Source of the DNA: Massilibacillus massiliensis
Lineage (GTDB): Bacteria; Bacillota; Negativicutes; FLKF01
Length of the DNA: 64,000 bases
Direction of reading: 5' to 3'
Assembly: GCF_900086705.1 (NCBI RefSeq)
Contig: NZ_LT575483.1
Coordinates: forward strand, 1,003,709 to 1,067,708
Position numbers and translations under genes: made by a program
Shown here: one piece after another, positions 17,642 through 56,735 of the stretch
How the letters are laid out: each line of letters opens with the position of its first letter
Numbering within the stretch: the stretch's first letter is position 1
The notes under the pieces: model-generated
What the model was told of the DNA's origin: nothing
What the model saw: only the letters and a program-made list of their open reading frames with translations
Database searches by the model: none

Positions 17642-18613
17642 TCACTCTTCCGCATGAAAAGCTAAAGCTGACAACAGTTTAGCCTCTGCCTCTTTAGTAA
17701 ACTGGATACCTTGGTTTGTTTGAAAAATCCAACCTTTATTTATACGATCATCCAGCCAATCAGTTATAAATTGAGGAGCATATCCTCCTGTGCTAAATTC
17801 ACCACTAAAGGCTAATATCATTTTATAATCTTTTAGGTACTGATCTCGACAAGTATTGGATTCTGATTTGGTATACAACCAAAATTGCAAATCATACATC
17901 AACATAGAAATTTCATCTGCATGTAGAGCAAAATACCCCTTCTCCTCCACCATTTTTCGGCATACAATTCGAATTTTCTCTTCTATATTTTCAACCTCTA
18001 CTACATTTTCGCAAAGTTTTGTCAACAACGGCGAAAATGCACTATATTTCACTTTCTCAAGTTCAACCTGTTTACGCTCTTCAGAGTCGTCATAGTCTTC
18101 CTCATTTACCAGACCGCGAATAAAAGTTTCAAAATTTTCAGCTAGGAAGGTAACCTTGTAATCACACTCCTGATCCACATGAACAACCTCTGGCTCTCCT
18201 TTTTTACCACACTTACGATAATCCAGCATTACCACATCATGTCCGGCAGATGGACAATCACAAATCACGACCCCAAAATCTGGATACCCCCATTCCTCAA
18301 TCATAAATGGACTGCCAAAATCACCACAAAGAGAGTACCTCTTTTCTCTTCCAATCCCCATAATCCCTGTAATCGCAACATGATCTTCTGCCCATGAAGT
18401 CGACACTGTCGTCGGAAAACAAGTGTTTAAAGGTATTCCTCCGTTATGAATCTTCATCATTTCGATATAGGAAGCTGGCAATTTGTATCCTAGCTCCGCT
18501 TCAATAGATTCTATGAGTTCGTCCGACGGTTTCTCACTTACATAATTTTTAACCGCATAATCTCGATCATCCCAAAAACTTGAGAAATCAAACTTGTCAA
18601 AATACTTTTTCAT
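17642..18613 (-). CDS. SMI1/KNR4 (SUKH-1) domain protein, probable immunity-type
   Basis: 323 residues. SUKH fold at about 20-175 (IESIEAELGYKLPASYIEMMKIHNGG split: LGYKLPASYIEMMKIHNGG; FGSPFMIEEWGYPDFGVVI; GHDVVMLDY). The C-terminal 140 residues are helical and of unknown fold. SUKH-1 proteins are commonly immunity proteins against contact-dependent or polymorphic nuclease toxins; no toxin gene is adjacent here. GAGGTGG RBS precedes the ATG. A broken second copy of its first 30 codons lies at 50005-50091. Confidence 0.85.
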   Translation of the reverse strand: MKKYFDKFDFSSFWDDRDYAVKNYVSEKPSDELIESIEAELGYKLPASYIEMMKIHNGGIPLNTCFPTTVSTSWAEDHVAITGIMGIGREKRYSLCGDFGSPFMIEEWGYPDFGVVICDCPSAGHDVVMLDYRKCGKKGEPEVVHVDQECDYKVTFLAENFETFIRGLVNEEDYDDSEERKQVELEKVKYSAFSPLLTKLCENVVEVENIEEKIRIVCRKMVEEKGYFALHADEISMLMYDLQFWLYTKSESNTCRDQYLKDYKMILAFSGEFSTGGYAPQFITDWLDDRINKGWIFQTNQGIQFTKEAEAKLLSALAFHAEE

Positions 18614-20059: not shown

Positions 20060-20084
20060 AACCAAAAACACCCGTCAAGTTTAT

Positions 20085-20114
20085 TTGACGGGTGACAATT
20101 CTCGACGCTATAAT
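20085..20114 (+). promoter_or_regulatory. Sense promoter of small-peptide gene, copy 1
   Basis: TTGACG, 18-base spacer, TATAAT. The -35 hexamer is the 3' arm of the antisense terminator hairpin. A second hairpin (AACAGGCACGG / CCGTGCCTGTT, 20118-20145) lies in the leader just before the ribosome site. Confidence 0.6.
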
Positions 20115-20169
20115 AATAACAGGCACGGCGAGCACCGTGCCTGTTAACTGAATACAGGAGGTGATTTCC

Positions 20170-20262
20170 TTGAAGTTTCGTTTCTTCCTCGAACTAGATG
20201 GAACGGTACTTGTCAAGGTAGTAGCACTCATAGCTTTTACCTTAAAAGTGCTTTTCACCTAA
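20170..20262 (+). CDS. 30-residue hydrophobic peptide, copy 1 (type I toxin-like)
   Basis: Too short for ordinary gene calling. AGGAGGTGAT (20156-20165) leads to TTG 20170, MKFRFFLELDGT then VLVKVVALIAFTLKVLFT, stop TAA. The last 18 residues form a potential membrane helix with two lysines. Copies at 24884-24976 and 56365-56457 keep VLxKVVALxAFxLKVL, with mostly third-base changes between copies 1 and 2, which indicates that this frame is translated. Convergent antisense transcription and stable terminators suggest a type I toxin-antitoxin unit. I do not recognise the family. Confidence 0.65.
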   Translation: MKFRFFLELDGTVLVKVVALIAFTLKVLFT

Positions 20263-20273
20263 TGCATTCACCG

Positions 20274-20303
20274 AAACGGCCTGCTGATCACAGGGCGTTT
20301 TTG
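20274..20303 (+). terminator. Terminator of small-peptide mRNA, copy 1
   Basis: AAACGGCCTG / CAGGGCGTTT stem with a 7-base loop, then TTTTTGG. The same terminator, with compensatory differences in the stem, closes the other two copies. Confidence 0.75.
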
Positions 20304-20387
20304 GTTTATTTAATTATATGCTTATTATACTAGATTTTATACACAATGTAAAATAAAAATCGACTGGTAATTACAAATAGTCATCAC

Positions 20388-20781: not shown

Positions 20782-21195
20782 TTAAATTTTACTACCGTTT
20801 AATCTTTCAAGCCATTTCAATATACAACCACTCTTAAAGAAACTTAACAACGCGCCATCGCAAAAGCGCTCGGCCCTAACAGCCCCCATAATAAGTGCAA
20901 GTACACATTGTTCATTTAATTTTGAAACGTCCGTATTCTCCATAGATTCCACACCCCATTCAAGGCCGTTATCTTTGAGAATATCTTTGTAATGGGTAAG
21001 ATTCATATCTTTATTGTTTTCTTCAAAGATATGAACGTCATTGATGAAGTTATGTACCATTTCGGAATATCCCACAAAAGGCATCTGTATAGGATGATCC
21101 ACTGTGCCATCGTTTTCTTTATCAACAACCCATTCGCCAATGTGATCTGCTTGGATTAACGATATATATTTTGTCAAAATATCAAATTTACGCAT
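20782..21195 (-). CDS. DUF6508-like protein
   Basis: 137 residues, soluble, mostly helical. Contains YKDILKDNGLEWGVESMEN and ALIMGAVRAERFCDGALLSF followed by CILKWLERL, the pattern of DUF6508 proteins of unknown function. GGAGGA lies upstream of the ATG. It is 76 bp upstream of ppnP on the same strand, so they could be cotranscribed. Confidence 0.7.
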   Translation of the reverse strand: MRKFDILTKYISLIQADHIGEWVVDKENDGTVDHPIQMPFVGYSEMVHNFINDVHIFEENNKDMNLTHYKDILKDNGLEWGVESMENTDVSKLNEQCVLALIMGAVRAERFCDGALLSFFKSGCILKWLERLNGSKI

Positions 21196-24793: not shown

Positions 24794-24822
24794 TTTACAA
24801 ACATGATTGAATCCGTTATAAT
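24794..24822 (+). promoter_or_regulatory. Antisense promoter of small-peptide locus, copy 2
   Basis: TTTACA, 17-base spacer, TATAAT. Identical hexamers and spacing in all three copies. Confidence 0.65.
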
Positions 24823-24845
24823 AAGCATATACTAAATAAACCAAA

Positions 24846-24870
24846 AACGCCCTGCGCTAACAGGACGTTT
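24846..24870 (-). terminator. Terminator of small-peptide mRNA, copy 2
   Basis: On the minus strand AAACGTCCTG / CAGGGCGTTT followed by TTTGG. Confidence 0.7.
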
Positions 24871-24883
24871 CGGTGAATCAGGA

Positions 24884-24976
24884 TCAGGTGAACAGCACTT
24901 TCAAGATAAAAGCTGTCAGTGCCACTACCTTGATAAGTACCGCGTCACTTAGTAAGAGTTCTATGCGGAGCTTCAA
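24884..24976 (-). CDS. 30-residue hydrophobic peptide, copy 2 (type I toxin-like)
   Basis: AGGAGGTGAT (24990-24981) then TTG 24976. Reads MKLRIELLLSDA then VLIKVVALTAFILKVLFT, stop TGA. Compared with copy 1, changes such as GTA/GTG, CTC/CTG, TTA/TTG and CTT/CTG are silent, which supports translation of this strand. The minus-strand sense promoter is TTGACG-18-TATAAT (25064-25035), its -35 again inside the antisense terminator, and the leader hairpin GCAAGCACGG / CCGTGCTTGC is at 25002-25027. Confidence 0.65.
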   Translation of the reverse strand: MKLRIELLLSDAVLIKVVALTAFILKVLFT

Positions 24977-25178
24977 GGATATCACCTCCTGTATTCAGTT
25001 TGCAAGCACGGTGTCAGCCGTGCTTGCTTTTATTATTATAGCTTTCATATTCGCTAGCCGTCAAACACAAGTTGACGGCTAATTTTTTTTGAGACAATGA
25101 TCCATGATGCAAAATACAATGCGTCCATCTCGTTGTTTTTTTGTTTTTAATATTTCTATAAATTAGCAGTTTGTCTTC

Positions 25179-26903
25179 TTATACGTTTGTCAACTCATCC
25201 TTAAATGCAGGTCTATTTGCATATTTTAAACGAAGCATCTGTTTGATTTTCGACGTTTCTTCTTTTCCACCTGCTTTTTTGAGATTTTGTATAATGCTAC
25301 ATACGCCTTGATAATCCCTTCTATTGCGCGCTCTGGCAGCCATTTGTTCAATATAGATCAAAAATATGGAACAGACTTCCTTTTTAAATTCAGGCAGAAG
25401 ATATTTATAATACCGTTCGACAACTGAAGGATTTTTTTGAACATACACAAGTAGTTTGTTCTTTTCACCTTCTACAATGAGGATTTGAGTATAGACGGTG
25501 CTATGGGTTTTCTTTTGTTCTTCCATTTTGGTGATTAGTTTAGGATATATATCGACCCATTCTTGACTATTGTAAGTTTTTTTCAAGTCTCTGTAATATT
25601 CAAAATTACCATCTAAAATAAAACCTATTGCCAAAGCACGTTGTTCATCCATTTTTCCCGAGCGTTTATAGGCTGTGTATCGATATTTTCTCCAATCATT
25701 CACAAGTCCCGATAATCCCTTGTCCAATTCTTCTCCGTCAAGGGCAAGTTTGATTACCTTATCATAATTCTTTTTCTGCATGGTTCGTTCTATAGCCATT
25801 TTTCTAAAGCTGGCAAAATGAAGGTTTTGTTCCACGAAATTGAGTGCCTGTTTCTCTCCTTCATTCTGTAATATCAGATTATATCTAATTTGAAATATTT
25901 TCTCATAAAAATATTTGGTGCTCCAGGAATCACCTTTTACATCGTTCAGCATTGATTGCAGGCAAGCTTCCAATTTATTTTGTAAAGAAGAACTATTCGC
26001 CAGTGCCGAGCAAGTTTCTAATAATTCAAATCTCCAATCATCCCAACCATCATATCGTTTATTGGCTGCTTCATGCAAAATTTTTTCAAAAAATTTTTCT
26101 TTTATGTCCGGGCTGAAATTTTCCTCATCAACCATTTCTTTTATAAGCGTAAGACTTTCCATAATTGTCGTCCCTACAATGCCATCAGAATCATCACAAT
26201 AGTCCAACTGATCCATCAGTTCATGAACTACACATAAGTTAAGATCTAAAGCATGCAGGAATTTCTTTTGTTGGACAGCAGTTTGCGCCTTCTTTAGTAC
26301 CATATCGGCACCTTGTATGGCTTCATACGTATCCCTATAAGAAATGAAACCATCCCAGTCAGCGTACTTATCGATAAAAGTACGAATCAATTCAAGTGAT
26401 TTTTTGATTTCATCATCATCATTTGTAGTATCAAGTTCCCATTCAATCCGTTGTTTTATCTCCATGTTTTCGCCTGCCGCATCTAGTAAAAATGCAATCA
26501 ATTCTTCCTTGGTTCTTCTGAAAAGAATATGTTCAATCCCATGATTTTTCTTTTTGGCGGAACCAGAAGCTTTGTCTTCCACTTCCGAATTACGCGTAGT
26601 TTTTAAAACATCGGTTTGTTTATGATCATCCATTGTTTTCATTTCCCTTAATGCAAAAAATGCTGCGACCTGATACTTGCAATACGCTCCCATGTCATAA
26701 GGACAATCGCATTGGGTACTGATGATATTTTTTTCGTCATCAAGTTCAACCTCAACGAAGTAAAGCTCTGTGCCTTCCACTTCCATTTCATAAAGATTTT
26801 TCTTTGTTTCTTTGATTGTATTGACGCAGTGATTTTCAAAATAATCCGATCCTCTTGTAATGATTTTAGCGTCGATATAGTATTCAAAATTGTCAAGATT
26901 CAT
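25179..26903 (-). CDS. SWIM zinc-finger-type protein
   Basis: 574 residues from ATG 26903 with GGAGGAG upstream. The N-terminal region (about 50-80) has CDCPYDMGAYCKYQVAAFF, which aligns with the SWIM motif CxCx(n)CxH, but tyrosine replaces the usual histidine. The rest is a long helical repeat region, probably scaffolding, rich in charged residues. SWIM proteins of this size are sometimes paired with SNF2 helicases, but none is adjacent. DNA or protein binding is inferred. Confidence 0.75.
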   Translation of the reverse strand: MNLDNFEYYIDAKIITRGSDYFENHCVNTIKETKKNLYEMEVEGTELYFVEVELDDEKNIISTQCDCPYDMGAYCKYQVAAFFALREMKTMDDHKQTDVLKTTRNSEVEDKASGSAKKKNHGIEHILFRRTKEELIAFLLDAAGENMEIKQRIEWELDTTNDDDEIKKSLELIRTFIDKYADWDGFISYRDTYEAIQGADMVLKKAQTAVQQKKFLHALDLNLCVVHELMDQLDYCDDSDGIVGTTIMESLTLIKEMVDEENFSPDIKEKFFEKILHEAANKRYDGWDDWRFELLETCSALANSSSLQNKLEACLQSMLNDVKGDSWSTKYFYEKIFQIRYNLILQNEGEKQALNFVEQNLHFASFRKMAIERTMQKKNYDKVIKLALDGEELDKGLSGLVNDWRKYRYTAYKRSGKMDEQRALAIGFILDGNFEYYRDLKKTYNSQEWVDIYPKLITKMEEQKKTHSTVYTQILIVEGEKNKLLVYVQKNPSVVERYYKYLLPEFKKEVCSIFLIYIEQMAARARNRRDYQGVCSIIQNLKKAGGKEETSKIKQMLRLKYANRPAFKDELTNV

Positions 26904-27063
26904 CAAAACTCCTCCTCCATTTGGCATTCTATAACAGATCTTTGCTCTGCGATAAGGTTTTTAGAATTAAATATTTTTGCGAAAAAAAAACCGCTTGTTG
27001 TTTACACCATCAGCTGCATTCAAAGCTACACAAGATAAAAAGAATTGTCACTTTGTCTACTAC

Positions 27064-56141: not shown

Positions 56142-56298
56142 AGTAAACACTCCTTCGACTTATCGTCAAATATTTTTACATAATCTATACGATTCCTCAT
56201 AGAAAAGAGAAGTCCTGCCAAATTGAACCCTATTCTATTATACCTTTATCGCAAAAAGACAGCTTATAAATTAAGCTGTCTTAATTAGTAAAATTTGT

Positions 56299-56304
56299 TA
56301 TAAT
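56299..56304 (+). promoter_or_regulatory. Sense -10 box of small-peptide gene, copy 3
   Basis: TATAAT. The -35 region falls in the 3' arm of the antisense terminator, as in copies 1 and 2, but the hexamer is poor (CTGTCT). A leader hairpin TTAAGGACGCAG / CTGCGTCCTTAA (56307-56337) follows. Confidence 0.5.
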
Positions 56305-56364
56305 AATTAAGGACGCAGTCAACGGCTGCGTCCTTAAAACTGAATACGAGGAGGTGTGTACCTT

Positions 56365-56457
56365 ATGAAGTTCCATTTTGATTTTGAGATCGAAGCGATG
56401 GTTCTTGTTAAGGTAGTAGCACTCATAGCTTTTACCTTAAAAGTGCTATCACCCTAG
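56365..56457 (+). CDS. 30-residue hydrophobic peptide, copy 3 (type I toxin-like)
   Basis: GAGGAGGTG (56348-56356) then ATG 56365. MKFHFDFEIEAM then VLVKVVALIAFTLKVLSP and TAG. 38 bases (56410-56447) are identical to 20215-20252 in copy 1. In this copy the opposite strand has an early stop in the frame that is open in copies 1 and 2, so the opposite-strand readings are not the conserved product. Confidence 0.65.
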   Translation: MKFHFDFEIEAMVLVKVVALIAFTLKVLSP

Positions 56458-56472
56458 CCTCATATTCAACCG

Positions 56473-56500
56473 AAACGCTCTGTATCCGCAGAGCGTTTTT
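56473..56500 (+). terminator. Terminator of small-peptide mRNA, copy 3
   Basis: AAACGCTCTG / CAGAGCGTTT stem, T-run. Confidence 0.8.
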
Positions 56501-56651
56501 GGTTTATTTAGTATATGACCATTATATGCTATTTTATTCATAATGTAAATAAGCGGCTATTGTTACGGGCTTATACCCTTTCTACACTTCCGCGTGCTAA
56601 AAACAAAAAGCCTACAAGCAACTACCTGCAAGCTTTATACCTATTAAATTC

Positions 56652-56735
56652 TGGTGCGGTTGATGGGATTTGAACCCACACGAGAGGTCTCACCACCGCC
56701 TGAAGATGGCGCGTCTGCCGTTCCGCCACAACCGC
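56652..56735 (-). tRNA. tRNA-Leu (CAG)
   Basis: Minus strand: acceptor GCGGTTG with CAACCGC, CCA encoded, long variable arm as in leucine tRNAs, anticodon stem CCATC/GGTGG with loop TTCAGGC giving anticodon CAG, T-loop GTTCAAATC. Confidence 0.93.

What the first reader, a model, noticed from the sequence alone, without database searches (positions are those of the whole stretch)
20060..20352. Three-copy small hydrophobic peptide with mirrored antisense transcription unit: candidate new type I toxin-antitoxin family
At 20060-20352, 24794-25090 and 56251-56549 the same module appears: a 30-residue peptide with VLxKVVALxAFxLKVL, strong RBS, terminator, and an antisense promoter TTTACA-17-TATAAT in all three. 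The antisense RNA (about 260 nt) would cover the whole mRNA. Codon changes between copies 1 and 2 are largely silent in the peptide frame. Neighbouring genes differ at each site, so it is not a leader of any one gene. Known type I toxins (TxpA, BsrG, Fst, Ldr) do not match by eye.
Basis: partly seen in the sequence, partly recalled or inferred. Interest (0 to 1): 0.82.

Follow-up and report, generated by a model that had tools for sequence, protein, structure and literature searches.

The report
Multi-copy peptide–antisense RNA toxin modules
The genome carries 16 intact or near-intact copies of a tiny gene for a membrane-type peptide of about 30 residues, each with its own antisense RNA running back across the whole message, and relatives sit on chromosomes, prophages and a plasmid across the bacterial class Negativicutes: very probably an undescribed family of self-poisoning "type I toxin-antitoxin" genes in which one conserved RNA frame carries several unrelated peptides.

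Summary
The three window copies are part of 16 intact or near-intact copies (plus a truncated and a decayed one) in this 4.0 Mb genome: ten "A" peptides (KFRF…VLVKVVALIAFTLKVLFT) and six "B" peptides (QLEFGKLKL…FELCR) on the same RNA. Each RNA has a 5' hairpin with many compensatory changes, a Shine-Dalgarno predicted to pair with bases just after the stop codon, a terminator and, downstream, a promoter for an antisense RNA covering the whole message. Covariance models find the same chassis in about 36 of 381 Negativicutes genomes, in no genome from outside the class in a 399-genome phylum sample, in prophages, and on Sporomusa sphaeroides plasmid pSSP59. Peptides are under purifying selection yet fall into several apparently unrelated types (A, B/C/E, D, F). 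Pfam, NCBIfam and Rfam have no match. Best explanation: an undescribed type I toxin-antitoxin family working like AapA/IsoA (message held silent by a 5'–3' fold, antisense RNA as antitoxin) but unrelated in sequence and with a full-length antisense. Toxicity and transcripts were not tested.

The parts
20170..20262 (+). Copy 1 peptide ORF (TTG start), MKFRFFLELDGTVLVKVVALIAFTLKVLFT
   Evidence: helix 2-28 in AlphaFold2 model, mean pLDDT 84.8
20118..20304 (+). Copy 1 sense (candidate toxin) mRNA: 5' hairpin 20118-20145, Shine-Dalgarno region 20150-20164, 3' arm 20255-20270, terminator 20273-20304
   Evidence: sense promoter TTGACG(20085-20090)-18-TATAAT(20109-20114). RNA ends inferred, not mapped
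20062..20317 (-). Copy 1 antisense RNA (candidate antitoxin), about 255 nt; promoter -35 20347-20352, -10 20324-20329; terminator hairpin 20070-20093
   Evidence: ends inferred
24884..24976 (-). Copy 2 peptide ORF (TTG start), MKLRIELLLSDAVLIKVVALTAFILKVLFT
24841..25028 (-). Copy 2 sense mRNA: 5' hairpin 25002-25028, Shine-Dalgarno region 24982-24996, 3' arm 24874-24891, terminator 24841-24871
   Evidence: -10 at 25035-25040
24829..25095 (+). Copy 2 antisense RNA; promoter TTTACA 24794-24799, TATAAT 24817-24822; terminator hairpin 25055-25081
   Evidence: ends inferred
56365..56457 (+). Copy 3 peptide ORF (ATG start), MKFHFDFEIEAMVLVKVVALIAFTLKVLSP
56309..56502 (+). Copy 3 sense mRNA: 5' hairpin 56309-56335, Shine-Dalgarno region 56342-56356, 3' arm 56453-56468, terminator 56472-56502
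   Evidence: -10 at 56299-56304, -35 weak
56250..56514 (-). Copy 3 antisense RNA; promoter -35 56544-56549, -10 56521-56526; terminator hairpin 56258-56280
   Evidence: ends inferred

Best explanation
Each module is a type I toxin-antitoxin-like unit. A short sense RNA of about 185 nt encodes a hydrophobic helical peptide of about 30 residues, most simply read as a toxin acting on the cell's own inner membrane. The sense RNA starts with a stable hairpin and folds back so that its strong Shine-Dalgarno and the flanking GAAUA pair with bases just after the stop codon, which would keep the full-length message largely untranslated. A second RNA of about 260 nt, from its own promoter beyond the sense terminator, runs back across the entire message and stops upstream of the sense promoter; it would pair with the message, or with a processed, opened form of it, and block translation and promote decay. 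If antisense supply falls (loss of the plasmid or prophage, damage, shutdown of transcription) the surviving message would be processed and the peptide made. Shown at sequence level: peptide conservation, RNA fold with covariation, both promoters, terminators, copy number, spread. Inferred: transcription, sequestration in the cell, toxicity, repression, activation by 3' processing.
For: 16 intact or near-intact paralogues in one genome at dispersed intergenic sites, with ordinary, mutually different neighbours. Covarying RNA structure: in 37 aligned modules 31 of 36 pairs have compensatory changes, 91.6% of cells paired against 38-47% when the partner is slid, covariation score 0.514 against 0.166 shuffled (that alignment was fitted to model R1). 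On the MAFFT alignment of A copies: 41 doubly changed cells against 13 shuffled. Shine-Dalgarno pairing to the 3' arm: mean probability 0.75 against 0.42 with the 22 nt after the stop shuffled, higher in 47 of 54 modules, Wilcoxon p 7e-9 (related copies are not independent). Peptide frame: pN<pS in 34 of 36 A pairs, 134 of 136 C pairs, 36 of 36 D pairs. Antisense promoter score >=9.5 in 70% against 2.8% of controls; antisense terminator in 32 of 54 against 80 of 1080. Same chassis in other Negativicutes, next to phage genes and on plasmid pSSP59 next to an integrase gene. Co-decay: of the A copies, L003, which lost the canonical antisense promoter, also has a degraded sense promoter; L008, which lost it, has another candidate (TTGACT-17-TAAAAT) about 65 nt further out. 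Mechanistic precedent: AapA/IsoA (PMC6733600).
Against: No transcript, translation or toxicity data. The sense -35 is weak in many copies. In one group (L022, L028, L108, L110) neither promoter fits sigma-70 well. Shine-Dalgarno occlusion is partial in several A and B copies (predicted unpaired 0.2-0.5), and truncating the 3' end in silico does not always open it. Several C peptides are only mildly hydrophobic (GRAVY 0.2-0.4).
Confidence: 0.77

Rival explanations
1. Small regulatory or structural membrane peptide, not toxic, whose expression is tuned by an antisense RNA (for example modulating a membrane transporter or sensor).
For: Peptide conserved and helical; some type I-like loci have mild or no known phenotype (general knowledge).
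Against: Apparently unrelated peptide types on the same RNA chassis (A, B/C/E, D, F), many paralogues per genome, decayed copies, and location on a plasmid and prophages fit an addiction or stasis module better than a housekeeping regulator.
Confidence: 0.14
2. RNA-level device: a sense/antisense RNA pair whose structured RNA is the active product, with the ORF incidental.
For: RNA structure is more conserved across the whole set than any peptide.
Against: Third codon positions vary most, pN/pS is 0.36-0.58 in every type, and the ORF is 27-33 residues with a correctly spaced Shine-Dalgarno in nearly all modules.
Confidence: 0.04
3. Leader peptide / attenuator of downstream genes.
For: Short ORF followed by a terminator.
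Against: Neighbouring genes differ, often face away, and have unrelated functions; both RNAs have their own terminators.
Confidence: 0.02
4. Miniature mobile element (MITE-like repeat) without function.
For: Dispersed copies; hits of model R2 on the opposite strand show some symmetry.
Against: Other copies are 75-90% identical to copy 1, with compensatory changes and coding selection; the architecture persists across families of the class.
Confidence: 0.03

Closest known systems
AapA/IsoA type I toxin-antitoxin family of Epsilonproteobacteria (H. pylori, PMC6733600)
   Same: Peptide of about 30 residues; several chromosomal copies; cis-antisense RNA; full-length message kept silent by a 5'-3' long-distance interaction that hides the Shine-Dalgarno.
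   Different: No local alignment between the A peptide and AapA1 (AapA1 sequence recalled, agreeing with residue positions given in PMC8309996). The AapA3/IsoA3 duplex is 80 bp and involves the truncated mRNA (PMC6733600); here the predicted antisense covers the whole mRNA from beyond its terminator. Up to 16 copies and several apparently unrelated peptides on one RNA chassis.
Ibs/Sib of E. coli
   Same: Multi-copy short hydrophobic peptide with a cis-antisense RNA.
   Different: Ibs is 19 residues (PMC8309996). Membership was not tested by sequence because IbsC was below the tool's length limit.
Fst/Ldr, TxpA/RatA, BsrG/SR4
   Same: Type I toxins, short helical membrane peptides with antisense RNA.
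   Different: No Pfam or NCBIfam match, whereas Ldr and Fst controls are recognised. From general knowledge, in TxpA, BsrG and Fst the two RNAs overlap mainly at their 3' ends.

Membership tests
Type I toxin-antitoxin (general class) | Small hydrophobic, helical membrane-type peptide | tested here: met
   GRAVY 1.2-1.8 for A peptides, best 19-residue window 2.0-2.7; helix 2-28
Type I toxin-antitoxin (general class) | Antisense RNA from its own promoter overlapping the toxin mRNA | tested here: inconclusive
   Conserved promoter and terminator; no transcript data
Type I toxin-antitoxin (general class) | Peptide toxic when expressed without the RNA | not testable with these tools
   needs induction experiments
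Type I toxin-antitoxin (general class) | Antisense RNA represses the peptide | not testable with these tools
   needs experiments
AapA/IsoA | Peptide homology to AapA | tested here: not met
   BLASTP of the A peptide with AapA1 only, no alignment
AapA/IsoA | 5'-3' interaction sequestering the Shine-Dalgarno | tested here: met
   in silico only:
AapA/IsoA | Activation of the mRNA by 3' processing | not testable with these tools
   needs northern blots and in vitro translation
Fst/Ldr | Match to the Pfam Fst or Ldr model | tested here: not met
   0 families for 8 peptides at E up to 10; positive controls found
Other type I families in Rfam | Match to an Rfam RNA family | tested here: not met
   only tRNA in the window at gathering threshold; only sub-threshold matches for L001 and L025
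Ibs/Sib | Peptide homology to Ibs | not tested
   IbsC is below the 20-residue minimum of the tool

The most novel reading that the evidence does not exclude
A toxin-antitoxin platform confined to Negativicutes: one conserved RNA control chassis (5' hairpin, Shine-Dalgarno lock, terminator, mirrored full-length antisense) in which unrelated toxic peptides have been exchanged, carried on chromosomes, prophages and plasmids, with up to 16 potentially orthogonal copies in one cell.
Probability: 0.5. Interest if true: 0.78.

Novelty: new variant of a known kind. Interest (0 to 1): 0.66.

Why it matters
[quoted passage not shown] The ORFs are easily missed: the peptide on pSSP59 has no annotated feature. 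Because the RNA chassis is recognisable without the peptide, it offers a route to find type I toxins that peptide searches miss, a known difficulty of the field (PMC8309996, PMC12390103). A genome with 16 similar antisense-controlled modules makes cognate specificity between paralogues directly testable, and Sporomusa sphaeroides DSM 2875, with five chromosomal modules and one on a plasmid, is a named strain in which to test it.

Tried and rejected
The pattern scan of genome contigs gave two chance hits without module structure (L063 Tenacibaculum, L066). tblastn of the A peptide in plasmids and of a D peptide in phages found nothing. A peptides were not found in viral contigs. Matches L085/L111 (one place), L086, L087 and L088 lack an intact ORF and were not counted as modules. 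Antisense-coded peptide considered and rejected: no conserved antisense ORF in the copies inspected. Leader peptide, RNA-only and MITE readings considered and ranked low. A pairing of ACUGAAUA with the sequence after the terminator was considered and dropped, because the register with the 3' arm before the terminator is the one that covaries.

Full report
What was checked. A blastn search of the 4.0 Mb genome with copy 1 returned 18 matches, which resolve to 17 loci with the module. Ten encode an A peptide (consensus MKFRFxLEIEGTVLVKVVALIAFILKVLFT), six a B peptide (MQLEFGxLKLxISSKFILAxAxLIELCR), of which one is frameshifted, and one is truncated. The covariance model found a further decayed remnant at 2281977-2282142. 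One claim failed: between copies 1 and 2 there are 5 silent and 10 amino-acid-changing codon differences.

RNA architecture. All 16 copies can be aligned from the upstream side of the sense promoter to the antisense promoter downstream. Right after the sense -10 lies a hairpin of about 10 bp whose sequence differs between copies but whose pairing is kept: 8 of 10 pairs in the A copies have changes on both sides. The mRNAs fold at -59 to -79 kcal/mol. In the fold, GAAUACAGGAGGUGA pairs with UCACCUAAUGCAUUC around and just after the stop codon, so the Shine-Dalgarno is in a long-range stem. In other genomes the 3' arm is often CCUCC..UAUUC, a fuller complement. On 37 aligned modules, 31 of 36 pairs of the hairpin, long-range stem and terminator have compensatory changes, with a covariation score of 0.514 against 0.166 for shuffles and at most 0.091 for slid partners. 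That alignment was fitted to model R1, whose structure came from A copies, so the MAFFT result for the A copies is the safer figure. The pairing of the Shine-Dalgarno with the 3' arm has mean probability 0.75, against 0.42 when the 22 nt after the stop are shuffled, and is higher in 47 of 54 modules; related copies are not independent. In several A and B copies the Shine-Dalgarno is still unpaired with probability 0.2-0.5, so the lock is incomplete in silico.

The antisense side. Downstream of the terminator, 14 of the 16 own copies have TTTACA or TTTACT, 17 bases, TATAAT on the opposite strand (the scan missed L013 because its frameshifted stop moved the scanned window, but its TTTACA-17-TATAAT can be read). 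Over 54 modules the antisense promoter scores at least 9.5 of 12 in 70%, against 2.8% of control windows. A terminator for the antisense RNA lies upstream of the sense promoter in 32 of 54 modules, against 80 of 1080 control windows. In copies 1 and 2 the sense -35 lies within that terminator. The predicted antisense RNA is about 255-265 nt and covers the entire sense RNA. The antisense strand's longest ORFs show no common peptide. L003 lacks the canonical antisense promoter and its sense promoter is degraded too; L008 also lacks it but has TTGACT-17-TAAAAT about 65 nt further out.

The peptides. pN/pS is 0.58 (A), 0.43 (B), 0.52 (C), 0.36 (D) and 0.46 (E), with pN below pS in nearly every pair, and third codon positions vary most in the three types checked. 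RNA structure also restrains silent changes, so these ratios probably understate the constraint on the peptide. The A peptide is predicted as one helix, residues 2-28, mean pLDDT 84.8, and is hydrophobic with net charge 0 to +3.

Distribution. Model R1 found the chassis in 12 of 61 relatives and 29 of 381 class members; model R3, built from C and D modules, in 33 of 381. My count of the union, leaving out genomes whose only match lacked an ORF, is about 36 genomes, 19 genera and 13 families. It is a lower bound because only six candidates per genome were scored. In a 399-genome sample of the phylum only this genome matched. The pattern scan named Propionispira raffinosivorans, Sporomusa sp. 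KB1 and Anaerospora hongkongensis; look-ups put Propionispira and Anaerospora in Negativicutes, which confirms the class of the window's genome. Its species was not identified. Elsewhere the same RNA carries other peptides: C (MRFKTKWFSLTVSSGALWIIYQIIREVSR and kin, apparently related to B through LETKxFxLxVS), E (32 residues, also LETK-like), D (MWISPRVIVWLIIALTIIALKPDKITVWFR-like) and F (MLQLILEVLLWALKVAYALLTLANKHTPN). A, B/C/E, D and F show no evident relation by eye, although A could be a distant relative of C; recruitment of new peptides cannot be told from extreme divergence here.

Mobility. IMG/VR contigs carry modules. One is beside an integrase gene (L069), one beside an anti-repressor and a phage-type regulator (L070), and one among structural genes (L068). 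The F module lies on the 59,087-bp circular plasmid pSSP59 of Sporomusa sphaeroides DSM 2875, between an integrase gene and an ATP-binding-protein gene, with no annotated feature under it. That genome has five more modules on the chromosome. In the window's genome the neighbours examined are ordinary and differ from copy to copy: argininosuccinate lyase, NUDIX, RecD2, FabH-like, P-II, GDP-mannose dehydratase and others.

Known families. No Pfam or NCBIfam family matched eight representative peptides even at E 10, while Ldr and Fst were recognised as controls (the recalled Fst scored below its curated cut-off). Rfam had nothing but a tRNA in the window and only sub-threshold matches for two loci. 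The closest mechanism is AapA/IsoA of Helicobacter, where the full-length message is inert because a 5'-3' interaction hides the Shine-Dalgarno, 3' truncation activates it, and the antisense RNA acts on the truncated form in a module-specific way (PMC6733600). The A peptide does not align with AapA1. Papers joining type I toxin-antitoxin with Negativicutes or Sporomusa were absent or unrelated; the library lacks most subscription journals.

Mechanism proposed. The sense RNA is made and folds shut. The antisense RNA, made from a promoter closer to consensus, pairs with it and removes it. If antisense supply stops, remaining message is processed and the peptide inserts into the inner membrane. 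Anatomy, covariation, promoters and spread are shown at sequence level; transcription, processing, repression and toxicity are inferred from precedent. I put 0.77 on an antisense-controlled toxic peptide. It works like a type I system; it is not a member of any described family that I could test, and calling it a proven toxin-antitoxin would need the experiments listed.

Noticed in passing
L022, L023, L026, L028, L108, L110: In most of these copies the best sense promoter (and in several the antisense one) reads TTCTAA-17-TATATT/TATGAT/TAAAAT rather than the sigma-70 consensus; one alternative sigma factor may drive both strands.
   Followed up: no
L003 43-1128 (own genome near 3.487 Mb): A RES-domain gene (type II toxin family) lies beside an A-type copy; four module copies, one of them truncated, lie within about 13 kb there (3.478-3.491 Mb).
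   Followed up: no
L025 1501-1684 and 2663-2846 (Sporomusa sphaeroides DSM 2875): A C-type and a D-type module lie in tandem 1.16 kb apart.
   Followed up: partly
window 56655-56735 (-): A tRNA gene lies about 100 bases beyond copy 3's antisense promoter.
   Followed up: no
window 25179-26927 (-): A 582-residue ORF beside copy 2 has no Pfam family.
   Followed up: no
window 17645-18613 (-) and 20785-21195 (-): A SUKH (SMI1/KNR4) immunity-type protein and a DUF6508 protein lie close to copy 1.
   Followed up: no
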